DNA of 64,000 nt, from positions 124,001 to 188,000 of the forward strand of contig JACPYP010000007.1 of assembly GCA_016195985.1 (NCBI GenBank), written 5' to 3'. Position numbers and translations under genes: made by a program. Shown here piece by piece: positions 29,091-52,335 of this stretch. A model generated the notes under the pieces. It ran no database searches. It saw nothing but the letters and a program-made list of their open reading frames with translations, and was not told the DNA's origin. Position 1 is the stretch's first letter. Every line of letters begins with the position of its first letter. This DNA comes from Acidobacteriota bacterium (lineage in GTDB: Bacteria > Acidobacteriota > Holophagae > Holophagales > Holophagaceae).

Positions 29091-29389
29091 GTGGAGACTC
29101 CTGTGGGCCTGGGCTAGAGGGGCAGCGGCCTTGTGGGTGAGGGCCGTGATCGCGAGGCGATCCAAGGCGTCATGGCCTCCAGCAGCGGGGGCAGTATGCC
29201 GAGATTGATCAATCCAAACGGTGTCATGGCCCGCCTCCGGCGTAGATTCATGCGATGGCCCGGCAATCTGCACGCGAAGCCTGCTTGCCTTCCGGAGCCC
29301 TGGAAGGAGCGGGTTTCATGCCAGTCCGGAAGGAGCTTATCCAGAGGACTTGAGCGACTTCTCCGATGTGGTGGAGGGGGCTGCGCCCA
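29091..29389. other. Intergenic region between adaptor-like and BON genes
   Basis: 299 bases. No protein with a ribosome-binding site is supported on either strand; the open readings here are extensions or shadows. It presumably holds the promoter of the BON operon, but no clear -35/-10 or sigma54 element was found. Confidence 0.4.
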
Positions 29390-30328
29390 TCAAGACGACG
29401 GGGCATCTCCTTCAATTCGATGTGAAGCGCTCCCGCGAACCCACAAGACCTTGTACCCCTCAAGCCACAGGCTGCTGGTGAATCCGGCCGCATGGGCCAA
29501 CAGCAGATCGCCGCCTCTCGCGGATGACCACTCCGAGACGCTAGGCAGCAGCGCAGGCCCCTTGGACCGGTAGCGAGCGCCCTCCAGCGCCGTAGGATCC
29601 AGCAACACGATGTCACCCGGGTGAAGGCCCGCGGTGACTTCCACCTCCCCACCGCCGTATTGGCCAAGCCTGACCGGAACCTGCACCGCCTGGCCCGCTT
29701 GCAGAATGAGCACGCAAGGACCGGAGGCGACACGCAGCGCCTGCAGTGGAATGGCCAAGGCCGACCGGCTCTGCCCATAGCGGATTTCCACCGACACCCT
29801 CATGTGGCGGTTGAGTTCTGCCGAGATCTGAGGAAGGTCCAGCGCCACATCCACCGTGCCCGGCCCGGAGCCCCCGCCTAAGGTGCTGTAGTGAATCTGG
29901 GCTGGGAACCACTTGTCCGGGAAGGCCTCAAGATGGACCAGAGCATCCTGATTTTTTCGCAGTTGGGAAGGGCTTCGCTCCTCGGGCTGGATGCGGAGTT
30001 GCATGGGCTCCTCCAGCGGCAGGGAGAAGCGCAGGCCAACCGCAGGGGTGGCTTTCTCCGTTTGGATCAGCCGGGCCTCACGCATCTGACCACTCACCAC
30101 CAGCGTCCTTAGCAGGTTCCTGGGCTGGACTTCCATGACCGCCATCCGGGGGCCCCAGATCCATCGCGGTGAGCAGGAAGCGAGCAAGAACAGCAGGCCG
30201 AGAAAGACGCCCCCAATGAGGAGGTGCCGTATCCATCGGACCCGGCGCCATCCGTTCTCGGGTGGCGAATTGCCTTTTCGCGATCTCCGCCCCTTGCCCA
30301 GCCTGGAACCGCGCGCCTGCCATCTCAT
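29390..30328 (-). CDS. RND efflux periplasmic adaptor-like protein, hairpin missing
   Basis: 312 residues from the ATG at 30328. A basic N terminus is followed by one membrane helix (about 36-54). The chain then has the membrane-fusion-protein beta-barrel and proximal parts: LRTLVVSGQMREARLIQ, later TVDVALDLPQ, MRVSVEIRYGQ, ALAIPLQALR and a beta-rich PVRLGQYGGGEVEVTAGLHPGDIVLL. The biotinyl-lipoyl and helical-hairpin part, usually 100 or more residues between the first strand and the barrel, is absent. No pump or outer-membrane factor gene is adjacent. It may be a degenerate or repurposed adaptor. Confidence 0.6.
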   Translation of the reverse strand: MRWQARGSRLGKGRRSRKGNSPPENGWRRVRWIRHLLIGGVFLGLLFLLASCSPRWIWGPRMAVMEVQPRNLLRTLVVSGQMREARLIQTEKATPAVGLRFSLPLEEPMQLRIQPEERSPSQLRKNQDALVHLEAFPDKWFPAQIHYSTLGGGSGPGTVDVALDLPQISAELNRHMRVSVEIRYGQSRSALAIPLQALRVASGPCVLILQAGQAVQVPVRLGQYGGGEVEVTAGLHPGDIVLLDPTALEGARYRSKGPALLPSVSEWSSARGGDLLLAHAAGFTSSLWLEGYKVLWVRGSASHRIEGDAPSS

Positions 30329-30545
30329 GATCGCCCACCCCTCGCATCTTGAAAACAAGGCCTGAACCCGGCCCCTCGCCCTTCAGGCGTTCCGGAAGGA
30401 ACATCGGGGACTGAGGTCAAGAGCCGTTTTCGTGCCACTCCCTAAGCCGCTTTGATTCATCGGCTTGAAGGGTCAGCCTTTCTCCAGGTGGCGCTCGCTC
30501 CATCAACATGAAGCATCTGCCCCTTCCATTCGAGGCGCGTCTGTC

Positions 30546-36979: not shown

Positions 36980-37774
36980 TCAAGAGAAGCCGCAGCTCGC
37001 ATCCAGCCAGGAGCCCAAAGCCGCGTTGAAAGCGATGGACTGTTCCATCGCCACGAGATGGCCGGCCTTGGGGAGGATCACAAGCTCCGCGCCCGGAATG
37101 CCCTCAGCGAGCGCCGTGGATTCACTGGGGGGAACGGTCGAATCCTCGGCACCGGCCAGCACCAGCGTGGGCACCCGGATATCCGCAAGGTCCGCGCGCC
37201 GATCAGCGCGTTCCGCCATGCCGAGCAGGGCGCTCGCGACACCCTCCGCACTGGACGAGCCCATGAGCTCCCGAATGGTTCCTTCCAAGCCGGGATTGGT
37301 TGTACTGGAGGCGAGCATCTTCGGGGCCATGGCCTCCACCACCGACGCGATGCCCTCCGCCTGAACTTTCTTAGCCGCCGCGATGCGGCCCTCGGCCACC
37401 TCGGGCGGGTCGGCGCCCGCCCGGGTCCCCACGAGCACCAGCCCACGCAGAAACAAAGGAAAGGCTTTCGCGAAGGCCAGAGCGACGTAACCGCCCATGG
37501 AGTGGCCGACGAGGATGACGGGGCCGGTTTTCAGGTGCTGACACAAGGCGAATAGATCCGACGCGAACAAGTCCATGGATGCGGGGCCCAGACGGGGTTC
37601 GCTGGCGCCGAAGCCCCGCAAATCGGGCGCAATGACCCGGTTCCTGTGTTTGAATCCATCCACCTGGCTCGACCAGCATCCCCGGTTCAAGGGAAAGCCA
37701 TGGACGAAGAGAATCGCCTGGCCCTTCCCTTCGTCCGTAAAAGAGGTCTGGTGGCCATGGATCAAGGTGCGCAT
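36980..37774 (-). CDS. Alpha/beta hydrolase
   Basis: 264 residues. The catalytic triad is intact: Ser92 in VGHSMGGY, Asp in LVLAGAEDSTVP and His in ILPKAGHLVAMEQS; the oxyanion block HGFPLNRGCW and DLRGFGASEP also fits. Typical of small esterases, haloperoxidase-like or pimeloyl-type hydrolases. Substrate unknown. A close paralogue at 46852-47598 has Ala at the nucleophile. ATG with AAGGACC upstream. Confidence 0.9.
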   Translation of the reverse strand: MRTLIHGHQTSFTDEGKGQAILFVHGFPLNRGCWSSQVDGFKHRNRVIAPDLRGFGASEPRLGPASMDLFASDLFALCQHLKTGPVILVGHSMGGYVALAFAKAFPLFLRGLVLVGTRAGADPPEVAEGRIAAAKKVQAEGIASVVEAMAPKMLASSTTNPGLEGTIRELMGSSSAEGVASALLGMAERADRRADLADIRVPTLVLAGAEDSTVPPSESTALAEGIPGAELVILPKAGHLVAMEQSIAFNAALGSWLDASCGFS

Positions 37775-37798
37775 GGGTGGTCCTTCTGAGATGGGAGT

Positions 37799-38074
37799 TC
37801 AACCGGGCAGGTCATCCACAGACACGGAAAAGCTGCGTCCCGGATCAGGTTTCTTCCAGACAAAGCGGCGTTTGGACCGATCCGAGGTCCCGCGAAACCC
37901 GGCCAGGGCCATTCGCGCCCGGTGCCGTCCCCGCCCAGCGAGGCGCTTCAATTCGGCCCGCAGTCGCGGACCGGTCTTAGGCGTGGTCAGCGCCAGCACC
38001 ACGGCACCAAGCGCGGCCCCGGCGAGAAAGATGAGGATGGAGGTGGCAGTGGGGGAACGCTGGGGCTGGCTCAT
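37799..38074 (-). CDS. YtxH-domain small membrane protein
   Basis: 91 residues from the ATG at 38074. One helix (about 13-31: LIFLAGAALGAVVLALTTP) precedes a KTGPRLRAELKRLAGRGRHR helix. This is the YtxH layout, in which the helix is followed by an amphipathic basic coil. A paralogue lies at 40191-40466 with the same LTTPKTGPxLR junction. The C-terminal tail is Lys/Arg-rich and unconserved. Role unknown; YtxH genes often respond to stress. Confidence 0.8.
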   Translation of the reverse strand: MSQPQRSPTATSILIFLAGAALGAVVLALTTPKTGPRLRAELKRLAGRGRHRARMALAGFRGTSDRSKRRFVWKKPDPGRSFSVSVDDLPG

Positions 38075-38217
38075 GGTCTGGAGTCCTTTCAGGGCGAGGG
38101 GAGGTCCGCCAGGCTCCATGAAATGGGGTGTCAGCGGTACCCGGTTTAAGCACACCATTCGGGTAAGGCGCGGAGCCGTGAGCCATATGACGTCAGGCTC
38201 CGCACTTCACCGGCCGG

Positions 38218-38586
38218 TTATTCCCAGTAGGGCGCGTATCCGTAGTAGGTATGGAGATCACGGTTCCACTGCTCGTCGGACATGGACGGCCAATGGTCCG
38301 AATCGAAACCGGGGGCCTTTTCTAACCGCTCCTTGGGAACCTTCAGCGAGTATTGGCTGTTGGCCTCATCGAATGCAAAGGAGCTGAAGGGGATGGCAAA
38401 CAGCTTCTCCCCCATATGCAGGAAGCCTCCGAAGGCCATGACCACATAGGCCACGCGTCCAGTCCTTGGATCAATGACGATTTCCTTGATGTTGCCAAGG
38501 CCTTCGCCGGCGGTATCAACCACCTTGGTTCCAATGATGCTGGAAGCTTTCACGGGGCAGTTTGAAAACAGGGCGAGCTGACTCAT
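38218..38586 (-). CDS. PRC-barrel domain protein
   Basis: 122 residues from the ATG at 38586 (GGAG 8 bases upstream). The PRC barrel spans about 12-85: ASSIIGTKVVDTAGEGLGNIKEIVIDPRTGRVAYVVMAFGGFL is the family signature, followed by FAIPFSSF. The C terminus is a variable tail rich in Asp/Tyr/Trp. Single-domain PRC proteins occur in stress and envelope clusters. No signal peptide. Confidence 0.88.
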   Translation of the reverse strand: MSQLALFSNCPVKASSIIGTKVVDTAGEGLGNIKEIVIDPRTGRVAYVVMAFGGFLHMGEKLFAIPFSSFAFDEANSQYSLKVPKERLEKAPGFDSDHWPSMSDEQWNRDLHTYYGYAPYWE

Positions 38587-38649
38587 GGAAATGCTCCTGA
38601 AACGCCTAAGGCGTTGGGTGAAGGGAAGACGTGAACGGAAGGCCTGAAC

Positions 38650-40098
38650 TTACAGGCCCGCATCCTTGGGAGCGGTGAGGCCCTCGCCAGAGACCACGAG
38701 TTCGACGCGTCGGTTTTCCTGGCGGCCGGCGGCCGTATCATTGGTGGCCACAGGATGTCCTTCGCCAAAGCCCTTGAACGTGATCGCCTCCGCCTTGACG
38801 CCCTGCTGCACCAGATAGTCCTTGGTGTTCTGGGCACGCTTCTCGGAGAGAACCTGATTGGAAGCCTCAGTACCGTTGCTGTCCGTGAAGCCCTCGGCCT
38901 CGATCCTCAGGCCCTTGTGGGTGGACAGGATGCCGGCGATCTTGGCCAGCTTCTCGCGGGCAGCGGGTAGGAGGGTTGCCTTGCCGTTTTCAAAGAGCAT
39001 GCCTGACATGTTGACGATCAGGCCACGGGCCGTGGTCTTGGTCTGAAGGACAGCGTTCAACTCGGCCATCAGCCGCGTTTTCAAATCATCGTTGCGAACC
39101 TGCAGGCCCTCGTTCTTCGCACGGAGACCGGCATTTTCCGTATCGGAATCCCGGGCCTTCTGAAGGGCCTCTTCTCCGGCGACATTGGCCGCGGCGGTTT
39201 CCCGCTTGGCCTCGCTGAGCACGTCCTGGGCCTGCTTCTGCTCCATGGCCACGCGCTCCACATCCTGTTTCTGGACGGCAATCAGGCGGGAGTCCTCCGC
39301 GCGTTGGACGGCTTCGCGGGCGGCGATGATCCGGCCCTTGTTGCCACCATCGTGGGTCTCCGCCTGGATGAGGTAGGCCTGGGCTTTCCCGTAGGCCTCA
39401 GGCGCGTAGCCCTGAGCACCTGCAGCCGCGGCGATGCGCACGGCGTTGCGGGCCTGGTAGACCTCGAAGGGCGTTTTGCTGTCAAGCACAGCCGGTTCAA
39501 GGGGGTTGAGGTTCAACGTGTACTGGCCACGCTTCAGCAGCTCGTATTTGGCGTCGATGAACTCGAACTGCTCCTTGGAGCCCTTCCGGACGGCGTTCTC
39601 AAGCACGATGACATTGCTGGGCTGGCTCACGGCGAAATAGGGCTCGGCTGTCACCACCAGGCCGAAGGTTTGGAGCTTCTCGATGACCTTGACCCTGCCT
39701 TTGCCGTTCTTGAGAACCACCTCACCCAGGTTGCTGGCGCGTCCCTCAGGGGAGATGCCCCACAACACGTAAGTGAGAAATTCGCCCCCGAAGGTGGTGG
39801 CGGGCGGCAGGTTTTTGAACTTGGCGGTGATCTCGATGGCGCCGTCCTCGCTTTTAACACGGGCTTCACCCGAGGCATTGGCAACGAGCACGGTCCCCAG
39901 CAGGTCGATCTCCGTCGAATGTTTCAGGTTCCGGTAGTTGATGGCGCGGGCAGAGCCCTGGACGACGGTCACTCGATAGAGCGGAACCGAGGTCGTCTGG
40001 GCCATAGGGATCTGGGGCTGCGGCGGAGACACCAAGATCGCTGTCGACTGAGCCGCCAACACCGCGGTGGTTAGGGGGATGATTTTCCAAATGATCAT
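38650..40098 (-). CDS. OmpA-family protein with DUF4398-like helical domain
   Basis: 482 residues from the ATG at 40098, with a signal peptide (about residues 1-22). A beta-rich N-terminal part (to about 200) precedes an alpha-helical DUF4398-like region with Ala-rich coils (YGKAQAYLIQAETH, VQRAEDSRLIAVQKQDVERVAMEQKQAQ) and then a C-terminal OmpA peptidoglycan-binding domain: IEAEGFTDSNGTEASNQVLSEKRAQNTKDYL and VELVVSG. It should anchor to peptidoglycan at the outer membrane. A hairpin-prone GC segment separates it from the YtxH gene. A second OmpA-type gene is at 43097. Confidence 0.85.
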   Translation of the reverse strand: MIIWKIIPLTTAVLAAQSTAILVSPPQPQIPMAQTTSVPLYRVTVVQGSARAINYRNLKHSTEIDLLGTVLVANASGEARVKSEDGAIEITAKFKNLPPATTFGGEFLTYVLWGISPEGRASNLGEVVLKNGKGRVKVIEKLQTFGLVVTAEPYFAVSQPSNVIVLENAVRKGSKEQFEFIDAKYELLKRGQYTLNLNPLEPAVLDSKTPFEVYQARNAVRIAAAAGAQGYAPEAYGKAQAYLIQAETHDGGNKGRIIAAREAVQRAEDSRLIAVQKQDVERVAMEQKQAQDVLSEAKRETAAANVAGEEALQKARDSDTENAGLRAKNEGLQVRNDDLKTRLMAELNAVLQTKTTARGLIVNMSGMLFENGKATLLPAAREKLAKIAGILSTHKGLRIEAEGFTDSNGTEASNQVLSEKRAQNTKDYLVQQGVKAEAITFKGFGEGHPVATNDTAAGRQENRRVELVVSGEGLTAPKDAGL

Positions 40099-40190
40099 GG
40101 GATTTCCTCTCTGGGAATGCATAGGAGGGCCCACCGCCACTCCGAGGTGAAGGGGCGGTGGCAGGATGTGTCTTCAGGGTGGTGAGGGCC

Positions 40191-40466
40191 TCAGCCTCTC
40201 AGATCTTGGGCGGCATCGGTCATTCCGCGTTTCAAATCCGCGGCGGCAAGGGCCGTGCGGCCCTTGAGGTCATCCCAGGTGTCGCTGGCATTTTCAGCCA
40301 TCTCGCCAGCCTTGCGGCGGGCTCGCCGGGTGAGATCCTTCAAATCGCCGCGCAGTTCGGGGCCGGTTTTCGGCGTGGTGAGCGCCACCACCACTGCGCC
40401 GACAGCGGCGCCTGCCAGGAAGGTCAAAAGGGTGGGGCCGTAGGAGGAGGTCTTAGGTTCATTCAT
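40191..40466 (-). CDS. YtxH-domain small membrane protein
   Basis: 91 residues from the ATG at 40466. A hydrophobic helix (about 11-29) is followed by a basic amphipathic helix (KTGPELRGDLKDLTRRARRKAG) and an Ala-rich coil to the end. Same family and size as the gene at 37799-38074. It overlaps the preceding DUF948-type gene by 8 bases, so the two are coupled. Confidence 0.8.
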   Translation of the reverse strand: MNEPKTSSYGPTLLTFLAGAAVGAVVVALTTPKTGPELRGDLKDLTRRARRKAGEMAENASDTWDDLKGRTALAAADLKRGMTDAAQDLRG

Positions 40467-40866
40467 GGTCAGGATCCTTTCCTGTGTCTTGGGCGGTGGA
40501 CTTGCTTTTGAAGAAGGCCAGCACGGAGCCGAGCCCTCCGAGAAGGCCCCCCACGGTGCGGGAGGCGGATTCAAGGGTCGTGCGAAATCGCTGATGCCAT
40601 TCCTTCACGGTGTGGCCCACCTCGCCCATAGAGCGGGTGAACACCGAGAGGTCGGTGAGGGTGTCCTGCAAGGTGACGGCCAGGTGATCCATCCGCAGCC
40701 GGGAGGCGTGAATGTCTTCGGCGATCTGGGAAAGATCCTTCCGCGCGGACAACAGGAATTGATCCAGGCCCCGCGCCGTGGTTCGAAGCTGGAAGAGCAG
40801 TGACACGGTGCCCGTGGCCACGGCAGCTAGCACCAGAATGAGGGTTATCTCCAGAACAATGGACAC
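40459..40866 (-). CDS. DUF948-like membrane-anchored coiled-coil protein
   Basis: 135 residues from the GTG at 40866, with GGGAGG 5 bases upstream. One N-terminal helix (about 6-27) is followed by a long coil (LRTTARGLDQFLLSARKDLSQIAEDIHASRLRMDHLAV...). The DUF948 pattern of a helix plus parallel coil fits. It begins 17 bases after the Dps gene. Confidence 0.75.
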   Translation of the reverse strand: MSIVLEITLILVLAAVATGTVSLLFQLRTTARGLDQFLLSARKDLSQIAEDIHASRLRMDHLAVTLQDTLTDLSVFTRSMGEVGHTVKEWHQRFRTTLESASRTVGGLLGGLGSVLAFFKSKSTAQDTGKDPDHE

Positions 40867-40883
40867 GGCGCCTCCCAAGGAAT

Positions 40884-41375
40884 TCACGCTTCCTGATGCG
40901 AGGTAAGCATCCAAAGCGCTTTGTCCATGGCTCGGCTCACCGAAGTGTAGAGGTCCGCCGAATCCTTGTCGCCGCACTTCTCGGCCTTCCGGATGCCCAG
41001 CCGAACCCGGCTGGTATAGTCGCTGTAGCGGTCCACCAGAGCATTCACGTGCGCCATGCCCTTTTTGGCTTCGATCGGGTACTCATCCAGGCTCGAGGCC
41101 ACCGAAGCCGCCCGGATGGTTCCGTGGGCCTGACCGCCGAGGGTGACGGCCCGCTCTGCGAAATCATCCACATAGGTTGAAAGTTGCGCATAGAGCGCGT
41201 CGAAGAGAAGGTGGAGGCTGTAGAAGTTGGGGCCTTTCACATTCCAGTGGGCCTGCTTGGTCTGGTAGGCCAAATCCAGCGTATCGGCCAGCGACTGGTT
41301 CAACATGGCCACCAGTTCTTCAGTGACCTTTCCTTCGAAAAGTTCGTGGTCAGCAATGCTCTCGTGCTTGCTCAT
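40884..41375 (-). CDS. dps: Dps-type DNA-binding/ferritin-like protein
   Basis: 163 residues from the ATG at 41375. Ferroxidase residues of the Dps family are visible: HWNVKGPNFYSLHLLFDALY (His and Asp of the dinuclear site) and the helices to the C terminus (LYTSVSRAMDKALWMLTSHQEA). The protein forms a 12-mer that stores iron with peroxide and shields DNA. The N-terminal tail is short and acidic, so DNA binding may be weak. Third iron/oxidative store in the window besides the encapsulin ferritin. Confidence 0.92.
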   Translation of the reverse strand: MSKHESIADHELFEGKVTEELVAMLNQSLADTLDLAYQTKQAHWNVKGPNFYSLHLLFDALYAQLSTYVDDFAERAVTLGGQAHGTIRAASVASSLDEYPIEAKKGMAHVNALVDRYSDYTSRVRLGIRKAEKCGDKDSADLYTSVSRAMDKALWMLTSHQEA

Positions 41376-41446
41376 GGGTAGCTCTCCTTGCAAGGGGCTT
41401 GGATGCCCAAGGGGATGATGCGGAATCCTGGATGCTCGTTCAGGTT

Positions 41447-41734
41447 TTAGGTGCGGGTTGCAGGTTTCGGAAAGTGCGACCGAAAGCGAGTCCAGGCCTT
41501 CTCGGTGCTGAGCTTCAGCGACTCCCATGCCTCGTCGGCGGAATCTCTGAGGACGCACAGCTGATGCTCGGCGTCATCGTGAATCCGCTGAAGCTTTTCA
41601 ATGGATTGATCGTACTGAACCTTCGCGCTGACTTCAGCGCGGCTGGCCTTAGCGCGGATCACTTCGATCTCGGCCTTCCACTGAGCGAGTTGCGCTTCCA
41701 GGTGGCCTTCATAGACCTTTCGGTTTTCGAGCAT
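41447..41734 (-). CDS. Sll1863-like coiled-coil stress protein
   Basis: 95 residues, almost entirely charged alpha helix: YEGHLEAQLAQWKAEIEVIRAKASRAEVSAK and later DDAEHQLCVLRDSADEAWESLK. The pattern matches the sll1863-type stress-response family. Its ATG has GGAGAA 5 bases upstream. No membrane segment. Ten bases after the lmo0937-like gene stop, same direction. Confidence 0.78.
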   Translation of the reverse strand: MLENRKVYEGHLEAQLAQWKAEIEVIRAKASRAEVSAKVQYDQSIEKLQRIHDDAEHQLCVLRDSADEAWESLKLSTEKAWTRFRSHFPKPATRT

Positions 41735-41743
41735 GGCGTTCTC

Positions 41744-41893
41744 CTATACCAACCTTCGGCCCTGGATGATCCGGATGAGCACGACCACAACGGCGATCAC
41801 CAACAGCACATGGATGAAGCCTCCCATGGTGTAGGCGCTGACCAAGCCAAGGGCCCAGAGGACGACCAGAACGACGGCGACAGTCCACAACAT
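41744..41893 (-). CDS. Lmo0937-family 49-residue membrane protein
   Basis: A short gene with AAAGGAGGA upstream of the ATG at 41893. Two helices, about residues 4-20 (VAVVLVVLWALGLVSAY) and 27-42 (HVLLVIAVVVVLIRII), and a basic end IIQGRRLV, which fits the Lmo0937/DUF5670 family of two-helix stress proteins. It is followed by the coiled-coil gene at 10 bases. Confidence 0.85.
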   Translation of the reverse strand: MLWTVAVVLVVLWALGLVSAYTMGGFIHVLLVIAVVVVLIRIIQGRRLV

Positions 41894-41962
41894 GAGATTC
41901 CTCCTTTGGGATTGAAGCCCCCGGCCCAGGCCGGGCCTGGAGCCAGGGCCGGTTGCTGGCGG

Positions 41963-42718
41963 TCACTTCACGGTCATCTTGTTGCTGACCTGTTTGACGC
42001 CATGGATATCCTCGGCGAGCTTGGTCACGAGGTCACGCTCAGCGCCGTTCTTGGCCTCGCCATGCAGACTCACCACCCCATCCCTGGTGGTCACCTTGGT
42101 GGCCAGGGCATGCGTGGATTTGTGGAAGAGCAGCGAGGATTTGACCTGGGCAGTGATGGAGGTGTCGTCAATCTTCTCGCCCATGGTCCGCGGAGGCAGC
42201 TTCGCCACCGTTAGGTTATTGCGGACCTCGGTCACACCATCCACATCCTTGGCGTATTCGGCCGTCAACTGTTTCTGGGCCGCAGAATCTGCCTTTCCGG
42301 TCAGCGTGACGACGCCGTTCTCCGTGTTCACTTCCGTGTCGGAGGCGCTCACATGCTTGTGAAAGGCGAGCACCGTTTTCACCTTCATGGTGATCCATCC
42401 GTCCGAATGATCGGCGGGCTGATCCCCCGCTACAGTCAGCTGGTTGTTCACGCTTTTCACGCCTGCCAAGCCAGCCACCGTTTCCTGTGCCAGAAACTTA
42501 TGGTAATCGCGGGAGACGGTGCCCGTCAGCGTTACGACGCCGGCGGATGAGTCCACCTTGATGTTGTCGCCCTTCAGATAGGTCATGAAGTTGTAGCTGG
42601 ATTTGGCCGAGGCTTCGATCTTGCGGTCCTGGTCGGATGCTTGCGCCGGGAGCCCCACCATGATCAGGGACACGGAAGTCAGGAGGGTGTGGCGGGCATT
42701 CAAGGCGAAATGGCGCAT
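41963..42718 (-). CDS. Periplasmic protein with three BON domains
   Basis: 251 residues with a signal peptide (about 1-27, cleaving after PAQAS). Three BON cores: IKVDSSAGVVTLTGTV (~55), TEVNTENGVVTLTGKA (~130) and TKVTTRDGVVSLHGEA (~205), each followed by a GV-K-x-V-x-N-x-L-x-V ending. OsmY-like architecture with an extra BON. Likely an envelope-stress protein in the periplasm. Paralogue of 28404-29090, but exported. Confidence 0.9.
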   Translation of the reverse strand: MRHFALNARHTLLTSVSLIMVGLPAQASDQDRKIEASAKSSYNFMTYLKGDNIKVDSSAGVVTLTGTVSRDYHKFLAQETVAGLAGVKSVNNQLTVAGDQPADHSDGWITMKVKTVLAFHKHVSASDTEVNTENGVVTLTGKADSAAQKQLTAEYAKDVDGVTEVRNNLTVAKLPPRTMGEKIDDTSITAQVKSSLLFHKSTHALATKVTTRDGVVSLHGEAKNGAERDLVTKLAEDIHGVKQVSNKMTVK

Positions 42719-42808
42719 GGCTGGCTCTCTTTCTGCCCCAAGGGGCGTAAAGGATGGATGGGACGGGGTTCAAGACGGTTGTTGGTTCTAGGTTTGTCGC
42801 GGCTGGAG

Positions 42809-43087
42809 CTACTTCTTGGAGGTGTTTCCCGAAGGCCGCCCTGCGGGGATCACCGGGTTTGAAAGCGTGGGGGCTCTGGGCGCCTTATCTCGGGCATTGA
42901 GGCTGGGCGCATGCTTGGGTGCCCTGTCCTGCCGTGATTCGTGTCGGGAAAGGTCATCCACTTTCTTGGAAGCGGTTGTCACTTGAGGCTTGGGGGCATC
43001 TCCGATTCTCGAATCCAGGCCTGGATGGGCCGGCTCTGGATTTCGGGTGGGCATGGGGTTAGGCGGTGGAATTTCGATGGGTCGCAT
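42809..43087 (-). CDS. Small disordered protein of unknown function
   Basis: 92 residues from the ATG at 43087, with AGGAG 6 bases upstream. Pro/Arg/Lys/Ser-rich without secondary-structure pattern or membrane segment (PIEIPPPNPMPTRNPEP, ending RPSGNTSKK). It lies 9 bases after the OmpA gene stop, so coexpression is likely. No family recognised. Confidence 0.5.
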   Translation of the reverse strand: MRPIEIPPPNPMPTRNPEPAHPGLDSRIGDAPKPQVTTASKKVDDLSRHESRQDRAPKHAPSLNARDKAPRAPTLSNPVIPAGRPSGNTSKK

Positions 43088-43096
43088 GGAAAGCTC

Positions 43097-44593
43097 CTAG
43101 CTTTTGGGGGTGTTTGGGTAGTTGATGATGAGGTTGACGCGGCGGTTCTCCTGCTGACCTTCAAGGGTGGTGCTGTAGGCGAATCGGCGCGTCTTGCCGA
43201 AGCCTTCGGCGGTCAACCGCGAGCGCTCGATGCCGAAGTTCTCCACCAGGCAGTTCACGACGTTTTGGGCACGCCGCATGGAAATGGCCATGGCCGAGGT
43301 ATCCGTGGTTTTCAGCTTGCCGGCGTGGCCTTCCACCGTGGCAGTGACCAAGGGGTTGGCTTTCAGGAAGCCTGCAGCCTTGCGGAGGTCGTCGCGGTGT
43401 TCCGGTTTGATCTCGTCTTTCATCAAATCGAACTCGATCTCCATGGCCATGGTGACCCGAGCTGGAGCGACCTTAAGTCCCTCGATGTCTGTCACACAAG
43501 ACACCACCGCATTGATGCGGCGATTCTCGCGCTTGCCCTGCTCCGTGCTGTTGTCCGACACCGGGCGAGTGTCCCCGTAGCCCACGGACGATAGCCGGGA
43601 GCGGTCGATGTGATTGGTCTCCACCAGGTAGTTCACAACACTTTCAGCACGCTTCCTGGAAAGCTCCATGTTGTGCTCACGTGCTCCCACATTGTCGGTG
43701 TGCCCTTCAATCACCACCGTGGTGTCCGGATACTTCGCCAAGAAGGTGCCGATCACTGCGAACCGCTCGGATTCCTCGCGTTGGATATCCCCCTTGTCAA
43801 TCTCGAATTGAATATCCAGGATGGTGCAGTACTGCTGAGTGCGGGCCACGGCAGGAACCACCACCGGAGTGGGGGCCACATAGGGCTCGGGGGCGGTGAT
43901 GGGGGTTGGTTCCGGAGGGGCCGTGTAGGCGACGGGAGAATCTGTCCGACGTCCGAAGCGGAAGAGGAACCCGATGGAAGCTAGGTCGATGTCACCCTTG
44001 TTGGCCACGGCATCGTTGATCCGGTAGCGCTCCCACTCCACCCGCATCCCGAAGGATTTGATGAAGTCGTACTGGAGGCCGCCGCCGTACTTCAGGTTGA
44101 TCGCCCGATCATTGGGAGTGGGGTTGGCTACCAGCACCGCGCCCGTTCGTTCGAAGGTGTCCTTCGTCTCCGCGGAGGCGGCGCCGACTCGAGCGAAGAA
44201 GGAGAACCGTTCCGTAAAGGGAATGTTCAGCACCGCGTCAAGGCTCACCCCTTTCACCTTCATCTCGGCGTTGAGGGTACCCAGGGGAACAGTGGCAGCC
44301 TTGAAACCCGCCTTGCCCAGATCGAAGTAGCCGCCCTCGAAGGAGACATATGAATTGAACTGGTAACCGCCGAAGACCTTGAACCCAGTGCCGTGATCGT
44401 TGTCTGTGGTCGAAGTGATGGTGAACCCGGTGGGCACGATGCCGCGGATGATCTTGTCATTCTCGAGCTTGGCCTTGGATTGGCCCACGTTGAAACCCGC
44501 GTACCAGCCTGCATCCTGGGCCATGACGGAGGGTGCGGCAATGAGCGCGAGCGCCACCAGACCAGGCATTCCAGCGGCTTTCATCGATGTCAT
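43097..44593 (-). CDS. OmpA-like outer-membrane protein with two OmpA C-terminal domains
   Basis: 498 residues with a signal peptide (to about 25). An N-terminal eight-stranded OmpA-type barrel (WYAGFNVGQSKAK, FKVFGGYQFNSYVSFEGGYF ... LASIGFLFRFG) is followed by a Pro-rich linker and then two peptidoglycan-binding OmpA domains, about 255-365 and 370-495. The first has VVIEGHTDNVG and SRKRAESVVNYL; the second has the less canonical VTATVEGHAGKLK. Tandem OmpA domains are unusual. Start supported by CAGGAG. Confidence 0.88.
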   Translation of the reverse strand: MTSMKAAGMPGLVALALIAAPSVMAQDAGWYAGFNVGQSKAKLENDKIIRGIVPTGFTITSTTDNDHGTGFKVFGGYQFNSYVSFEGGYFDLGKAGFKAATVPLGTLNAEMKVKGVSLDAVLNIPFTERFSFFARVGAASAETKDTFERTGAVLVANPTPNDRAINLKYGGGLQYDFIKSFGMRVEWERYRINDAVANKGDIDLASIGFLFRFGRRTDSPVAYTAPPEPTPITAPEPYVAPTPVVVPAVARTQQYCTILDIQFEIDKGDIQREESERFAVIGTFLAKYPDTTVVIEGHTDNVGAREHNMELSRKRAESVVNYLVETNHIDRSRLSSVGYGDTRPVSDNSTEQGKRENRRINAVVSCVTDIEGLKVAPARVTMAMEIEFDLMKDEIKPEHRDDLRKAAGFLKANPLVTATVEGHAGKLKTTDTSAMAISMRRAQNVVNCLVENFGIERSRLTAEGFGKTRRFAYSTTLEGQQENRRVNLIINYPNTPKS

Positions 44594-44943: not shown

Positions 44944-44960
44944 GCGCACGTTTTGCGCCA
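44944..44960 (-). promoter_or_regulatory. Sigma54-like promoter of the leftward envelope genes
   Basis: Leftward reading TGGCGCAAAACGTGCGC has the invariant GG and GC spaced by 10 bases: -24 TGGCGCA, -12 GTGC. Two mismatches to the consensus are present. It points to the TTG gene at 44915 and the OmpA gene behind it, and lies next to the divergent sigma54-activator gene. Confidence 0.5.
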
Positions 44961-45010
44961 TTTCACAAGACACTGCTTGCCAGCGTTTAAATAAAAGGCC
45001 CATCAGGACC

Positions 45011-45047
45011 GGGGTGGTATCTTCAATCAAGATGAACGACCCACCCC
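45011..45047. repeat. Nested inverted repeat upstream of the sigma54 regulator
   Basis: Outer arms GGGGTGG (45011-45017) and CCACCCC (45041-45047) enclose ATCTT (45019-45023) and AAGAT (45029-45033). It sits between the divergent promoters and 27 bases before the regulator start; it could be an operator or a leader hairpin. Confidence 0.4.
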
Positions 45048-45073
45048 TTCAGTCCGAAGGATGAAGGCCACCA

Positions 45074-46528
45074 ATGCGTGCCGAGGATCTGGACCACAAG
45101 GAACTTCTGGAATTGGACCCAGAAGAGGGAACCATCCGTTTCGCGGGTCAGCGGGCCCTCCTGCTCGATGCCGTCGCCATGGGTCTCCTGCGAAAGTACC
45201 TGGTAGAGAACTTCGGCCACGCAGCGGCCCGCACCGTACTCACTCAGTTCGGCTTCGCCCACGGCTGGCGCATGGCCGAGGCCATGCAGGCTGAATTCAA
45301 GTGGGCCAACGACGGGGAGCGATGCCACGCGGGGACCCGCATCCACTCGCTGGGAGGCCTCTTCGGCGTGGGCTCGGAAAACCGCGATCCCCGATCAAAA
45401 GAAGGGATGATGATCATCGCTTCCTACGAGGCGGAGCAGCATCTCCTTCACTTCGGCCGGGCGGATGCGCCCATGTGCTGGACCATCTGCGGCCTCATCA
45501 GCGGCCACCTGAGCCATACCTTAGGCAAGGAAGTGTTCGTCCTCGAAGACCGCTGCCTGGGCAAGGGTGATGCCGGTTGCCACCTCTTCGCGCGAACACG
45601 TGAGGAGTGGGGCGACGAGCGGGCGGAGGAACTTAAGTTCTACGAGAAGGGCCGCTTGGCGGACTGTCTTGAGGTCTCCCTCCACCGTGTGACCGAAACC
45701 CTGAAGGCGGCAGAGCGGAAACTCAAAGAGCATCGTAAAGCCCTCATTCAGGTGGCCTGGAGTGGTGATGAGCCCCAATTGGGGATCGTGGCGAAAAGCA
45801 AGGCCATGCGCCAACTGGTGGACCTGGCCCGGCGCGTCGCCAAGGTCGATTCGACGGTGCTCATCACAGGCGAAAGCGGCTCTGGCAAGGAACGCATCGC
45901 TCGGCTCATCCATGAGGAATCCACCACCCATGATCGGCCCGGGCTCTTCGAATCAGCCCGTGGAGGCACCCTCCTCCTGGATGAAGTCGGTGAAGTATCC
46001 CCGGGCATGCAAGTCAAACTCCTACGCACCATCCAGGAGCGGGAGGTCCGCCGGGTCGGGGAGAACATGAACCGCAAGCTGGATGTCCGCATCCTCGCCG
46101 CCACCAACCGCGATCTGGCCGCGAGCGTGACCAGCGGCACCTTTCGACAAGACCTCTACTACCGGCTCAAGGTGGTGGAGCTCATTGTGCCGCCTTTGCG
46201 CGAGCGCCGGGACGATGTGCTGCCCCTCGCACGGGCGCTGCTGGCTGGATCGGCCCTGCAGATGAAGCGGAAGATCACGGGCCTATCCCCGGGCGCCACG
46301 GACCAGCTTCTGCGCCATGCGTGGCCAGGTAACGTGCGTGAGCTGGAGAATGCCATGGAGCGGGCCGTGGCCCTGGCCCCAGGCAGCCGGGTGGAGTTGG
46401 AGGATCTGCCCGAGGACAGCCACGCTCTACCGGAAGCTCAAGAGCTACGGCCTCATCGGTGTGACAAGAGCTCTATAGTCTTCCGCGTTCGAAATGGATG
46501 GTTCCTATACTCGGCTCTCCGTGCCTGA
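45074..46528 (+). pseudogene. XylR-type sigma54 regulator lacking GAFTGA loop and Fis HTH
   Basis: 484 codons. Residues about 6-105 are a XylR_N domain and 110-172 a V4R small-molecule domain; then comes an AAA+ domain with Walker A GESGSGKE (266-273) and Walker B LLLDEVGE (300-307). Only about 25 residues separate the two, where family members have about 60, including the GAFTGA loop that contacts sigma54. Here IHEESTTHDRPGLFE (about 280-292) fuses the flanks, so the loop is deleted. The C terminus is also damaged: after ELEDLPED the frame changes, and the Fis helix end ATLYRKLKSYGL is found in another frame (46429-46488). It cannot activate sigma54 as in its relatives. Confidence 0.8.
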
Positions 46529-46851
46529 GCCGAAGGGCCGCTGGGGCCGAGGTTGGCACCCATTGGATTGATCGATGACAAACGAAGGTGCCTGCGGGAC
46601 ATGATCCGATGCCGTACCGTGGGCCTTCAGTTTGAAGGAGGCCCTGCTTCAACTTGATCCAACCGTGGTCGTTGATGGACTGGGAGACTTGGCGATTTCT
46701 TGTATTCGTTTGGATTTAGTGATTGGCGCAGGATTGGCTTCCTTTCGCCTCTGAAAGTCATGATCTGATCGTCCTTCTCATCCCAGATTCTGCGGCAGGG
46801 CTTCCGATAGAGGTTCTTGTCCCGCCAACGACGGCGCACAGGAGGTAGGAC
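46529..46851. other. Gene-free interval between regulator and hydrolase
   Basis: 323 bases. The displaced Fis end of the regulator stops at 46488, just before it. No supported ORF, RNA or promoter was found. A 91-codon minus-strand reading (46627-46902) has no ribosome-binding site or motif. Confidence 0.4.
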
Positions 46852-47796: not shown

Positions 47797-49023
47797 TCAT
47801 TTCCGGGCCCATCCGCAGTACCCGACTTGGCGGGAAGGGGTGAAGGCAAAGCGGAACCGGTCGCTCACGCGTCCGGTGATCACCATCCGGAGGAAGGCCC
47901 AGGTGAAGACCCTGGGGCGGACCCCGCGCAGGACCTCCACCTCCAGGCCCTCCCGGGCGCAGATGGCCACCAGCTCTGACGGCTTCAGGAACAGGCCATA
48001 GACATGCATGTTGCGGGGCGTGTTCTTGACGAACCACTCTACCCCTTTGATGGCGAGGAGCCAGCTCAGTGGCGTCCGGTTGAAGGTGTGGAAGAAGAAC
48101 CAGCCACCAGGGCGAAGCACCCGCGAAGCCTCCCGGATGACCTCCTCGCGCTCGGGCAGGTGCTCGAGGAAATCCATCATGCAGATCACGTCGAAGGTTC
48201 CATCCGCAAAGGACAGCTTCCGGGCATCCATGGGGAGGTATGTTACAGAATCCGTGATGTCGTGGTTTCTTGCCACCGCGAGGCTGTCTGCAGAAAGATC
48301 GATGCCGGTGACCACATGGCCCGCCGCCGCGAGAGGATTGCTGAGGAAGCCGCCCCCACAGGCCACATCCAGAATGGCCAGGGAACGCGGTCCGAATTCG
48401 GTCCACAACGTGGCCATGACCCAGGAGGTTCGAAGCCGGGCCTCCGCCCTAAGCAGCGCCACGGGATCATCGGTGGCGTCGTACCAGCGCTCTCCGAGGC
48501 CGTCGTAGATCGTGTTGTTGATCTCTGGCAGGCCTTCCTCCAAGGGCTTGAGGCCAGGCCGGTGGGCCAGCTGAAACACCAGGAATCCGGCGACCAGGAT
48601 CACCTGCAGCAGGAGCATCCATTCGCCCAGGAGCTGAGAAGGCATGGGGAATTCATGAGAGGGGCCAGGACCCACTTGGAACCACAGGAAGCCCGTTGAG
48701 ATCAGAACCAGGGGGTGCAGAAGAAACAACGCCGCATGCAGCCAGTGCTCTCCACCCTTGCACAGGCGTTGATGAATGAACTCATCCTTGGTGATCAGGA
48801 GGCAGGAGGCGGCGGCCAGCCCTCCAAACAGCCACAAGTGAGGCGTGGTCGGGGTGAGCAGCAGGGGGCAAGCGAGGCAGGCCAGGAAAGCCGAGGTGTC
48901 CAGCGCGTGTCCCAGCCACTCCCATCGCGGAATCACCCGCCGGCGATGAAACGCGAACTCATCCAGGGCCATCGCCAGCCCCTGCAGGCTGAAGGGCAGA
49001 AACCAGAGAAGGGTGCTGTTCAC
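47797..49023 (-). CDS. Membrane-fused UbiG-like SAM methyltransferase
   Basis: 408 residues from the GTG at 49023, which overlaps the polyketide synthase stop (GTGA). The N-terminal half (about 1-180) has four or five helices with conserved-looking LDEFAFHRRRVIPRWEWLGHALD and TKDEFIHQRLCKGGEHWLHA segments. The C-terminal half is a class I methyltransferase with motif I ILDVACGGGFLS, GIDLSADSLAVAR, CMMDFLEHLPE and LRPGGWFFFHTFNR, like UbiG. It probably O- or C-methylates the product of the coupled type III polyketide synthase at the membrane. The fusion with a membrane domain is unusual. Confidence 0.82.
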   Translation of the reverse strand: MNSTLLWFLPFSLQGLAMALDEFAFHRRRVIPRWEWLGHALDTSAFLACLACPLLLTPTTPHLWLFGGLAAASCLLITKDEFIHQRLCKGGEHWLHAALFLLHPLVLISTGFLWFQVGPGPSHEFPMPSQLLGEWMLLLQVILVAGFLVFQLAHRPGLKPLEEGLPEINNTIYDGLGERWYDATDDPVALLRAEARLRTSWVMATLWTEFGPRSLAILDVACGGGFLSNPLAAAGHVVTGIDLSADSLAVARNHDITDSVTYLPMDARKLSFADGTFDVICMMDFLEHLPEREEVIREASRVLRPGGWFFFHTFNRTPLSWLLAIKGVEWFVKNTPRNMHVYGLFLKPSELVAICAREGLEVEVLRGVRPRVFTWAFLRMVITGRVSDRFRFAFTPSRQVGYCGWARK

Positions 49024-50180
49024 CTGGATTTCCGGAGGATGGCGCCCGCAATGGTCAGGCCTGGGCCGAAAGCGAGGGAGACGATCAGCGTCCCTGGTTT
49101 CACGCTCCCGTCTTCGAGGAGGAGCTGCCACACGTGCGGCAAGGTGGCCGAGGACATGTTCCCGTATTGGCCCAGGATGGCGTTGCTGGCTTGCACCTGC
49201 GCCGGCTGCAGACCCAGGTGCTCTGCGATCTCATCAATGATCCTGGGCCCGCCTGGATGGATGGCGAAAATGGCCGTTTCAAGCAACGCTGGGATGGTCA
49301 GATCCGCGGATACGGCCAGGCGCTCCAGGAACGAACCTAGGCCGGCGCGGATGTGATCGGGCACCTTCCGCGAGAGGGTCATTTGCATCCCGAATTCCGA
49401 GACCATCCAGGTCATGGCGTCTTCGGTGCCTGGAGCGATCTCCTCATGGGTGGCCAACAGTTCCAGTCCCTTCTGGTTCTTTTCGCCTGTGTCCGCCTGC
49501 GATACGGAGTAGCGGATCAGGCCATCAGCGAACAGCGTCTGCACCACCAGCTGTTCAGGCAGGTGCTGACTCGGGTCCATATGCAGGGTGCAGAGCTCGG
49601 TGTGGACGATGTCCACTCTGGATTTCCCGCGTGCCACAAAGCCCGCGGCCATCCGGATGGCCGGCATGGAGGCGTAGCACCCCATGTGGTAGGCGTGGAT
49701 CACTTCCGTGCTGGCTCCCCAGTCCCTTCTCGCCACCAGGCGCTGGGCGCCGCTGGGCGAGACATACCCTGTGCAGGTGACGTGGATGAGAACATCCGGC
49801 GGAGACGTATCTTCGGCATAGAACCGTTCGAAGGCCTCCTCGCAAATCTCACTGAAGAAGCGGCTCCGCTCTCCGCAGTCCATGCCTCTGGGGAAGGCAT
49901 TGAGCTGGAAGATCCGCATTCGATCCCAATCCCTATGGGTGAAGTCCTCCAGCGCAGAGTTGCGGAAGGCGATGCGATCGGTGCTGCATCCAAATCGCAG
50001 CACCAGCTTCCGGAATCTCCGGATGAGGACAGCTCGTTCCTCCTCCGTCGCCGGTGTCTGGAGTGTAATCTCCGCCTGGGCGTGGGCGGCGGCAATCCAT
50101 TCCAGGATGGCGCCCTGATCCGAGCGGTAGGCCGCGGGCTGAATCTGGAAATCGTGCAGATAAACAGATGTTTGGGTCAT
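49020..50180 (-). CDS. Type III polyketide synthase
   Basis: 386 residues, full length for chalcone-synthase-like enzymes. The catalytic triad is Cys168 in YHMGCYAS, His308 in IHPGGPRIID and Asn341 in YGNMSSATLP; the FGPGLTIAGA block forms the C terminus. No signal peptide. Together with the coupled methyltransferase it likely makes a methylated long-chain resorcinol, pyrone or quinone-like lipid. Starter unit not known. ATG at 50180 is the first good start. Region 50181-50549 separates it from the divergent dismutase operon. Confidence 0.9.
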   Translation of the reverse strand: MTQTSVYLHDFQIQPAAYRSDQGAILEWIAAAHAQAEITLQTPATEEERAVLIRRFRKLVLRFGCSTDRIAFRNSALEDFTHRDWDRMRIFQLNAFPRGMDCGERSRFFSEICEEAFERFYAEDTSPPDVLIHVTCTGYVSPSGAQRLVARRDWGASTEVIHAYHMGCYASMPAIRMAAGFVARGKSRVDIVHTELCTLHMDPSQHLPEQLVVQTLFADGLIRYSVSQADTGEKNQKGLELLATHEEIAPGTEDAMTWMVSEFGMQMTLSRKVPDHIRAGLGSFLERLAVSADLTIPALLETAIFAIHPGGPRIIDEIAEHLGLQPAQVQASNAILGQYGNMSSATLPHVWQLLLEDGSVKPGTLIVSLAFGPGLTIAGAILRKSR

Positions 50181-50459
50181 TGCGAAGGGCCCCCTCGTGC
50201 TGGGGCTCAACGCATTTCTCGGGCCTATCACTAAATTATTTAAAATTAGCTAATTGAAGCGTGTTGATGCGGATTCGTGGCACCCGGAATCCATCAATTT
50301 GACTACAGGCGCCCGCCACATTGAGGGATTTGATGAGCCTTCGGCCACCCCAGCGGACCTCGGTCGAACTGAAGGCGTGAGCCATTCAATTTGGTGGGAT
50401 TTCCTGTCACCGCGCCGGAGCACTCCCACAAGGCAATAGGAAACAACTTGGTTAGGTGT

Positions 50460-50475
50460 TGGACCAGAAATTGCG
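50460..50475 (+). promoter_or_regulatory. Sigma54-like promoter of the SOD-ferritin-encapsulin operon
   Basis: TGGACCA-N4-TTGCG: invariant GG and GC 10 bases apart, with a full TTGC at -12. Predicted start near 50486, about 64 bases before the SOD ATG. The repeat unit behind it contains a second TTGCGG. Confidence 0.5.
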
Positions 50476-50491
50476 GAAAGAAATTGCGGAA
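50466..50491. repeat. Perfect 13-bp tandem duplication
   Basis: AGAAATTGCGGAA occurs twice without a gap (50466-50478 and 50479-50491). The first copy forms the -12 part of the sigma54-like promoter. It may be a recent slippage event or paired protein sites. Confidence 0.7.
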
Positions 50492-50549
50492 GAGGCCCGG
50501 TCCCTTGGTGAAGCCTCATCCCGATCACCCGATCCGCTGGAGAGATGAA

Positions 50550-51176
50550 ATGACGTACGAGCCCATGAATTATGAATACCTGAGGGGTGGAGCGATCAAG
50601 GGTTTCAGCGACAGCCAACTGGAGCTTCACTTCACCCTGTACAAAGGATATCTGACCAAGCTCAATGAGATCGAAGAGAAGCTGATCTCGGCAAACAACA
50701 GCAAACCCAACTACTCCTTTAATGAATACAGTGAGCTGAAGCGTCGGGAAGCCGTGGCCTTTAACGGCTCCTTCCTCCACGAGCTGTATTTCGAGAACCT
50801 GGGCGCCGATACCCAGACCAGCCCAGAGCTTGAGAAGGCCATGGATGCGCAGGGTGGTGTGGACAAGATCCTGGCGGATCTGAAAGCTGCGGCCCTCGGT
50901 GGCCCCGGCTGGGCCCTGCTCACCCAGAACCGCAGGGATGGAAAACTTCACACCTACTTCGTGGCAGAACATCACCTGGGCATGCCCATCGACCAGGATT
51001 TGCTCCTGGTCCTGGACAGCTGGGAGCATGCATTCATGGTGGATTTCGGGATGAGGCGCTCCGATTACATCAATGCCTTCCTGGAGAACATCAAGTGGAG
51101 TCAAGTCTCCCGGCGATTCGCCAACGCGAAGCTGCGCCATTCAGGGGAGGGGCTCCATGAGCGGGGGATTCATTGA
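50550..51176 (+). CDS. Fe/Mn-family superoxide dismutase (encapsulin operon)
   Basis: 208 residues from the ATG at 50550 (GGAGAG upstream), with no leader. Family blocks: LELHFTLYKGYLTKLNEIEE, NGSFLHELYFENLG, GGPGWALLTQ, and SWEHAFMVDFGMRRSDYINAFLENIKWSQV near the C terminus, which carries two of the metal ligands. It resembles the Tat-leader dismutase at 3668 but is cytosolic. Its 3' end overlaps the ferritin gene by 20 bases. The C terminus lacks an encapsulin targeting peptide, so it may remain outside the shell. Confidence 0.85.
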   Translation: MTYEPMNYEYLRGGAIKGFSDSQLELHFTLYKGYLTKLNEIEEKLISANNSKPNYSFNEYSELKRREAVAFNGSFLHELYFENLGADTQTSPELEKAMDAQGGVDKILADLKAAALGGPGWALLTQNRRDGKLHTYFVAEHHLGMPIDQDLLLVLDSWEHAFMVDFGMRRSDYINAFLENIKWSQVSRRFANAKLRHSGEGLHERGIH

Positions 51177-51495
51177 ATCGGGCCTTACAGCCGCTTCCCT
51201 CGACTTGCACCGGGCCTTGGCCAGCCTGCAAGAGGAATTAGAGGCCATCGACTATTACCACCAGCGGGTGGATGCCGCCTCCGACAGCGCCCTGAAGAGC
51301 ATCCTGGTGCACAACCGCGATGATGAGATGGAACATGCGGCGATGCTGCTGGAGTGGCTGCGCCGGACCCTGCCCGGCTTCGATCTCCAGTTGAAGAAAT
51401 TCTTGTTCATGTCCGGAGATCTGACTGCCCTCGCCAAGGGGGATCCACCTTCCGCCACGAGCGGAAGCGGCCTTGGCCTGGCGAACTTGAAATGA
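51157..51495 (+). CDS. Encapsulated ferritin-like protein (EncFtn)
   Basis: 112 residues from the ATG at 51157 (GGGGAGG upstream). The two-helix EncFtn core contains QEELEAIDYYHQRVDAASD (Glu27/Glu29) and RDDEMEHAAMLLEWLRR (Glu57, His60), the ferroxidase residues of this decameric ferritin relative. The C terminus SGSGLGLANLK (about 102-112), after a flexible Pro/Ser linker, resembles encapsulin cargo-loading peptides (G-S-L-G-I-G-S-L-K type). Cargo of the encapsulin encoded next, making an iron-storing compartment. Confidence 0.9.
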   Translation: MSGGFIESGLTAASLDLHRALASLQEELEAIDYYHQRVDAASDSALKSILVHNRDDEMEHAAMLLEWLRRTLPGFDLQLKKFLFMSGDLTALAKGDPPSATSGSGLGLANLK

Positions 51496-51516
51496 CCTTG
51501 TCCGGGAGATGCAGCC

Positions 51517-52335
51517 ATGGCTGACCTGCTGCGCCGCGAAATGGCCCCCATCGTCGATGAGGCCTGGAAGGAAATTGAACTTCAGAGCTCGCGCATCTTG
51601 AAGGGCAACCTGTCCGCCCGGAAGGTGGTCGATTTTCTGGGCCCTTATGGGTGGAAGCATGCGGCCATAAATCTTGGGAGGCTGGAAATCGGCCCTGAAT
51701 CCGCCACAGATGGTGTGGCCTGGGGCCTGCACAAGGTGCTTCCCCTGGTGGAAATCCGGGTGCCCTTCACGTTGGGGATCTGGGAGCTGGATGATGTGGC
51801 CCGAGGCGCGAAGAACCCAGACCTGGAATCCCTGAAAGCAGCTGCGCGGAAGGCGGCCCTGTTCGAGGAATCGGCGCTCTACTGGGGATTCGAGGAGGCA
51901 GGCATCCAGGGCTTGCTTCAGAGCTCCAGCCACCCTCCCGTGTCGCTGAGTCCTGACCGGGGTCGCCTCACGGAATCTGTGGAACTCGCCCTGTTGGCCA
52001 TCCAGGAGGCCGAGATCGGAGGGCCCTACGCACTGGTGCTGGGCAGCGAGCCCTACAAATGGCTGATGGCGGGCGAATCCAACAGCTATCCCCTTCGGAA
52101 ACGCATCGAGGCCCTCATCACCGGCGGCATCCACTGGAGCCCGGTGCTCGAAGGGGGCGCGGTGCTCTCCCGCCGGGGCGGCGATTTCGAGATGTCGGTG
52201 GGTCAGGATCTAGCCATTGGCTACAAGATCCACCAGGCCCGTGAGGTCGAATTGTACTTCACCGAGTCTTTCACATTCCGCGTGCTGGAGCCGGCGGCGG
52301 CGGTGGCGTTGAAGCTGGATCGGGCCTCGCTCTAG
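51517..52335 (+). CDS. Encapsulin shell protein (family 1)
   Basis: 272 residues, the length of T=1 family 1 encapsulins. The HK97-like fold pattern runs MADLLRREMAPIVDEAWKEIELQSSRIL, VVDFLGPYGWKHAAINLGRLEI, VPLVEIRVPFTLGIWELDD, SVELALLAIQEAEIGGPYALVLG, and the C-terminal FTESFTFRVLEPAAAVALKL. It lies 21 bases after the ferritin gene. The shell would enclose the EncFtn and mineralise iron. Complete. Confidence 0.93.
   Translation: MADLLRREMAPIVDEAWKEIELQSSRILKGNLSARKVVDFLGPYGWKHAAINLGRLEIGPESATDGVAWGLHKVLPLVEIRVPFTLGIWELDDVARGAKNPDLESLKAAARKAALFEESALYWGFEEAGIQGLLQSSSHPPVSLSPDRGRLTESVELALLAIQEAEIGGPYALVLGSEPYKWLMAGESNSYPLRKRIEALITGGIHWSPVLEGGAVLSRRGGDFEMSVGQDLAIGYKIHQAREVELYFTESFTFRVLEPAAAVALKLDRASL

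What the first reader, a model, noticed from the sequence alone, without database searches (positions are those of the whole stretch)
50460..52335. SOD-encapsulated ferritin-encapsulin operon behind a sigma54-like promoter
Three coupled genes (SOD 50550-51176, EncFtn 51157-51495 with 20 bases overlap, encapsulin 51517-52335) combine superoxide removal with an iron-storing protein shell. EncFtn ends in a targeting-like GSGLGLANLK, while the SOD does not, so the SOD may sit outside the shell and feed peroxide to the ferroxidase. A SOD built into an encapsulin operon is, to my knowledge, not a described arrangement. The sigma54-like site TGGACCA-N4-TTGCG adds a control link.
Basis: partly seen in the sequence, partly recalled or inferred. 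Interest (0 to 1): 0.82.

Follow-up and report, generated by a model that had tools for sequence, protein, structure and literature searches.

The report
Superoxide dismutase in sigma54-controlled encapsulin operon
In the iron-reducing soil bacterium Geothrix, a second copy of a superoxide-removing enzyme has been built into the operon for an iron-storing protein shell, and the whole unit appears to be switched on by an activator-dependent stress promoter shared with other stress genes.

Summary
SOD (50550-51176), EncFtn (51157-51495, 20-base overlap) and a family 1 encapsulin (51517-52335) form one cassette. It is conserved in Geothrix: all 10 genus genomes found with EncFtn have this SOD directly upstream (one with an internal deletion). 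It is absent from four other Holophagaceae loci and from 64 EncFtn loci elsewhere. The SOD is a second copy, distinct from the housekeeping SOD (about 74% identical); all metal ligands are invariant and it is under purifying selection. No SOD tail carries a cargo-loading peptide, while every EncFtn does, so the SOD most likely stays outside the shell. The same box-plus-promoter recurs at four other window sites and beside a XylR-N/V4R sigma54 activator gene across Geothrix; the reversed control pattern gives no hits. Best reading: a Geothrix-specific, sigma54-controlled superoxide and iron defence operon, a new variant of the known EncFtn-encapsulin system. Peroxide feeding and co-localisation are untested.

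The parts
50550..51176 (+). Fe/Mn superoxide dismutase, 208 aa, SodFM4-like (ligands H27, H77, D156, H160; second-sphere H141; motif HFTLYKGY), second copy linked to the encapsulin operon
   Evidence: distinct from the unlinked SOD copy
51157..51495 (+). encapsulated ferritin EncFtn, 112 aa, ferroxidase residues E27, E57, H60, Y34 by alignment, C-terminal loading peptide GSGLGLANLK
51517..52335 (+). family 1 encapsulin shell protein, 272 aa, closest solved shell Haliangium ochraceum 7odw
50362..50397 (+). paired upstream activator boxes (GGTCGAACTGAAG, then TTCAATTTGGTGG starting 23 bp later)
50460..50474 (+). sigma54 -24/-12 core TGGACCAGAAATTGC, 98 bp after the start of box 1 and 90 bp before the SOD ATG
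45074..46528 (+). XylR_N/V4R/AAA+ sigma54 activator gene; this copy lacks the GAFTGA segment and the C-terminal HTH that full-length orthologues in other Geothrix have
44946..45059 (-). activator boxes (45026-45059) immediately upstream of the activator gene but pointing away from it; sigma54 core 99 bp on (44960), towards the OmpA-type gene 43097-44593
46625..46738 (+). activator boxes plus sigma54 core (46724) ahead of an alpha/beta hydrolase gene (46852)
30423..30535 (-). activator boxes plus sigma54 core TGGCACGAAAACGGC ahead of open frame 29390-30358
29309..29422 (-). activator boxes plus sigma54 core TGGCATGAAACCCGC ahead of a BON-domain gene 28404-29273

Best explanation
The three genes are one transcription unit of a sigma54-dependent stress regulon in Geothrix. 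A XylR-N/V4R-type activator, supplied in trans, binds paired boxes about 99 bp upstream of a -24/-12 promoter and turns on a second SOD copy, the encapsulated ferritin and its shell together (sequence evidence; binding and transcription inferred). The SOD and EncFtn frames overlap (4 bases in most species), so their translation is probably coupled. EncFtn is loaded into the shell by its C-terminal peptide and oxidises and stores Fe(II). The SOD has no such peptide and most likely works in the cytosol, removing superoxide that would otherwise release iron from Fe-S clusters and reduce stored Fe(III). Together they limit Fenton chemistry when a Fe(II)-rich anaerobe meets oxygen (inference from known chemistry). 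The operon arose when a duplicate SOD was placed upstream of EncFtn-encapsulin genes; a relative without the SOD already shows the sigma54 control.
For: Operon conserved in 10 of 10 EncFtn-positive Geothrix genomes; 4-base SOD/EncFtn overlap in most, 20 in the window. SOD metal ligands invariant, pairwise dN/dS about 0.06-0.23 where dS could be estimated, fold matches Aquifex Fe-SOD 1coj. Loading-peptide motif in 7 of 7 EncFtn tails and 0 of 7 linked SOD tails. Boxes plus TGG/CGG-N10-GC at 98-100 bp in 10 of 10 aligned operons; 5 of 5 window sites paired at 98-99 bp against 0.8% per random position; absent from eight unlinked-SOD loci; about 40 genus-wide hits against 0 for the reversed control. 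Boxes sit beside the activator gene in most orthologues; the activator gene co-occurs with the operon (9 of 10, p 1.3e-4) and with box-bearing genomes (14 of 16, p 3e-6). rpoN present. L092 has box plus core upstream of EncFtn-encapsulin without SOD.
Against: No expression, binding or localisation data. In the isolate Geothrix fuzhouensis (L071) the SOD has an in-frame internal deletion while EncFtn and shell are intact; in one MAG (L067) the shell gene is missing while SOD and EncFtn remain, so the three parts can separate. The activator copy in the window looks defective and the second copy (C33) is cut by a contig end. L074 has its box further upstream, ahead of another gene, and L075 has none in the held sequence. 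The box pattern was derived from these same operons, so their match to it is partly by construction; the fixed spacing, the other genes and the other genomes are the independent part. The co-occurrence p-values ignore relatedness of the genomes.
Confidence: 0.75

Rival explanations
1. The SOD is physically part of the compartment (packaged, or docked on the shell) and passes hydrogen peroxide directly to EncFtn.
For: Conserved adjacency and overlapping frames; every intact linked SOD has a C-terminal extension of about 7-16 residues that the unlinked copy lacks; EncFtn-type ferroxidases are described as using O2 or H2O2 (PMC11202242).
Against: The extension is not conserved and never resembles the loading peptide; the N-terminus aligns without extension to that of the unlinked SOD; EncFtn and shell persist without an intact SOD in L071.
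Confidence: 0.1
2. The SOD is a bystander: a duplicate that landed in front of EncFtn and serves mainly as a translational leader, its enzyme activity being dispensable.
For: The in-frame internal deletion in L071 keeps a short open frame running up to EncFtn; an unlinked SOD exists in nearly all Geothrix genomes.
Against: Strong purifying selection and invariant active-site residues in the other linked copies.
Confidence: 0.12
3. The conserved upstream elements are not sigma54/activator sites but some other conserved control region.
For: The -24 element departs from the TGGCACG consensus at several positions; no footprint exists.
Against: 98-100 bp spacing in orthologous operons and in other genes, GG-N10-GC core, adjacency to a sigma54 activator gene, rpoN present.
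Confidence: 0.07

Closest known systems
Family 1 EncFtn-encapsulin iron storage systems (Rhodospirillum rubrum, Haliangium ochraceum)
   Same: EncFtn with C-terminal loading peptide directly upstream of a family 1 shell; ferroxidase residues kept
   Different: SOD gene upstream with overlapping frame, and an activator-box/sigma54 promoter; neither turned up in the encapsulin survey and EncFtn review consulted or in the paper searches
Fe/Mn superoxide dismutases of the SodFM4 kind, with Aquifex pyrophilus Fe-SOD 1coj as best solved match
   Same: All metal ligands, C-terminal water-coordinating His, lost second His of the HXXXHH motif
   Different: One residue shorter in that motif (HFTLYKGY against HFEAHYKGY); metal preference unknown
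XylR/DmpR (CapR, MopR) type sigma54 activators
   Same: XylR_N, V4R and AAA+ domains; full-length orthologues have GAFTGA and a C-terminal HTH
   Different: Target genes here look like stress genes rather than aromatic catabolism; effector unknown; window copy incomplete

Membership tests
Family 1 encapsulin | HK97-type shell protein, NF041155/PF04454 above cut-off | tested here: met
   281.8 bits against 100; 269.1 against 24.3
Family 1 encapsulin | cargo with C-terminal loading peptide in the operon | tested here: met
   EncFtn tail GSGLGLANLK, conserved in 7 of 7
Family 1 encapsulin | shell assembly with cargo inside | not testable with these tools
   needs purification and cryo-EM
EncFtn | PF22277 match and the HXXXEEXEH ferroxidase motif | tested here: met
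   118.4 bits against 27; HNRDDEMEH, with D in place of the first, non-coordinating E. TIGR04535 just under cut-off, 112.8 against 125
SodFM4 superoxide dismutase | three His and one Asp metal ligands | tested here: met
   H27, H77, D156, H160 invariant in 22 sequences
SodFM4 superoxide dismutase | C-terminal water-coordinating His and loss of the last His of HXXXHH | tested here: met
   H141 invariant; motif HFTLYKGY
SodFM4 superoxide dismutase | homotetramer, SOD activity, metal preference | not testable with these tools
   biochemistry needed
SOD as encapsulin cargo | loading peptide on the SOD | tested here: not met
   0 of 7 linked SOD tails match the motif that all EncFtn tails match
sigma54/activator promoter | GG-N10-GC core | tested here: met
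   window, and 10 of 10 aligned operons
sigma54/activator promoter | upstream activator sites at fixed spacing | tested here: met
   98-100 bp in 10 of 10 operons and 5 of 5 window promoters
sigma54/activator promoter | sigma54 in the genome | tested here: met
   PF04552, 2.3e-56
sigma54/activator promoter | binding and activation shown | not testable with these tools
   needs footprinting or in vitro transcription

The most novel reading that the evidence does not exclude
The SOD binds the shell through its variable tail or by another non-standard route, so that superoxide, peroxide and Fe(II) are processed in one particle: the first SOD-linked encapsulin.
Probability: 0.08. Interest if true: 0.8.

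Novelty: new variant of a known kind. Interest (0 to 1): 0.52.

Why it matters
It ties superoxide removal and iron storage into one regulated unit in an iron-reducing genus, and gives an encapsulin system a concrete regulatory logic (activator box, sigma54) with a candidate activator and further target genes. Natural deletions of the SOD in one species and of the shell in another make the division of labour directly testable.

Tried and rejected
SOD as a peptide-loaded cargo: rejected, no motif in any tail. A general SOD-encapsulin association across bacteria: rejected for EncFtn systems, no SOD by HMM within the available flanks of 64 EncFtn loci outside Holophagaceae, some of which are cut by contig ends; encapsulins with other cargo were not surveyed. 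Sigma70 promoter: none found. Viral contigs with EncFtn: none. Domains in the extra gene upstream in L074 and L092: none found. Papers joining encapsulin with Geothrix or with sigma-54: none in the library. The two copies in G009 contig C40 are mirror images (14314+22411 = contig length + 1), so one locus in a palindromic assembly, counted once. First attempts at alignments failed on strand and were redone.

Full report
Observation. The window lies in a 4.26 Mb genome (G000, contig C14); the named records of its relatives are Geothrix and other Holophagaceae (Acidobacteriota). Pfam and NCBIfam identify an Fe/Mn SOD, EncFtn and a family 1 encapsulin. The overlap is 20 bases and the EncFtn-to-shell gap 21 bases.

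Conservation. In the genus screen plus the phylum screen, ten Geothrix genomes have EncFtn, and in all ten a SOD of the same subgroup lies directly upstream; in one of them (L071) it carries an internal deletion. A named scan returned 80 EncFtn loci. An HMM for the SOD finds it only in Geothrix and close MAGs (L064-L068, L070-L076); four Holophagaceae loci (L069, L077, L079, L092) and all 64 loci outside the family have EncFtn without SOD in the available flank. The arrangement is therefore real and conserved, but restricted to this lineage.

The SOD. It belongs to the divergent SodFM4-like kind: ligands H27, H77, D156 and H160 and the second-sphere H141 are invariant in 22 sequences, and the HXXXHH motif is reduced to HFTLYKGY; the SodFM4 criteria are from PMC10172142. 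The predicted fold (pLDDT 86) matches Aquifex Fe-SOD 1coj best. Nearly every Geothrix genome also has an unlinked SOD (about 74% identical), which ends FGK, whereas linked copies carry a variable extension of about 7-16 residues. Linked copies need only one change on the tree, though support for that branch is weak. Pairwise dN/dS of about 0.06-0.23 indicates purifying selection.

EncFtn and shell. By alignment with solved EncFtn sequences and the residue numbering in PMC11202242, the ferroxidase residues are kept. All seven EncFtn tails match a loading-peptide motif and none of the seven linked SOD tails does. The closest solved shell is that of Haliangium ochraceum (7odw).

Promoter. Comparison of upstream regions shows, in ten of ten operons, paired boxes with spacing 23 (CTTCRAACTGAAG, TTCATTTTGATGG) and a TGG/CGG-N10-GC core 98-100 bp from the first box, while the core-to-SOD distance ranges from 73 to 238 bp. 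In the window the box pattern occurs six times at up to 3 mismatches against 0.4 expected, two of these being the two strands of one site. All five distinct sites have the core at 98-99 bp, against 0.8% for a random position. Across 47 Geothrix genomes the composite pattern gives about 40 hits and the reversed control none. The eight unlinked SOD loci examined have no such site. L092, which lacks the SOD, has the box and core ahead of an extra gene and EncFtn-encapsulin, and L074 has the extra gene plus SOD, suggesting that sigma54 control came before the SOD.

Activator. A XylR_N/V4R/AAA+ gene lies at 45074-46528 with a box immediately upstream, pointing away from it. Of the orthologues in 15 other Geothrix genomes, ten have the same divergent box with a core at 98-100 bp. 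The gene co-occurs with the operon (9 of 10) and with box-bearing genomes (14 of 16); relatedness was not corrected for. The window copy lacks the GAFTGA segment and most of the HTH; a second copy (C33) ends at a contig edge at the same residue, so an assembly fault is possible. rpoN is present.

Natural exceptions. Geothrix fuzhouensis SG12 (L071) has lost most of the SOD by an in-frame deletion and keeps EncFtn and shell. MAG L067 lacks the shell gene and keeps SOD and EncFtn, with the caution that its contig is a palindromic assembly.

Conclusion. A known iron-storage encapsulin system with two features not found described here: an operon SOD and a sigma54/activator-box promoter. Shown from sequence: conservation, frames, residues, absence of a loading peptide, promoter architecture. 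Inferred: joint transcript, activator identity, cytosolic SOD, and the purpose of limiting Fenton chemistry. Untested: peroxide relay and co-localisation.

Noticed in passing
L012 1986-2656, L009 895-1591, L057 6094-6495, L056 7251-7529, L011 1986-2435: Downstream of the unlinked SOD gene several Geothrix genomes carry tandem copies (mostly 91-97% identical, about 100-440 bp) of the SOD 3' end plus following sequence; cause unknown.
   Followed up: partly
window 28404-44593: Cluster of stress-type genes on the minus strand: BON proteins, P-type ATPase, PLD-like protein, DUF1003, zinc alcohol dehydrogenase, YflT, Dps-like ferritin, OmpA proteins; three of the five box/sigma54 promoters of the window lie in or next to it.
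   Followed up: partly
window 47797-50231: Divergent type III polyketide synthase-like gene and a methyltransferase with a likely membrane N-terminus; reverse-strand boxes in L066 and L072 suggest shared control.
   Followed up: no
G000:C33:1-852: Second activator gene copy, 92% identical to the window's, ends at the contig edge at the same residue where the window copy has its deletion.
   Followed up: partly
L074 3783-4364, L092 4393-4971: Unknown protein of about 193 aa between the sigma54 site and SOD or EncFtn; no Pfam match.
   Followed up: partly
G009:C40 (36724 bp): Palindromic contig, an assembly artefact that doubles the SOD-EncFtn locus.
   Followed up: yes
L078: A Fibrobacteres MAG contig carries an EncFtn 59% identical to the window's, higher than in most other phyla; possible transfer or binning error.
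   Followed up: no
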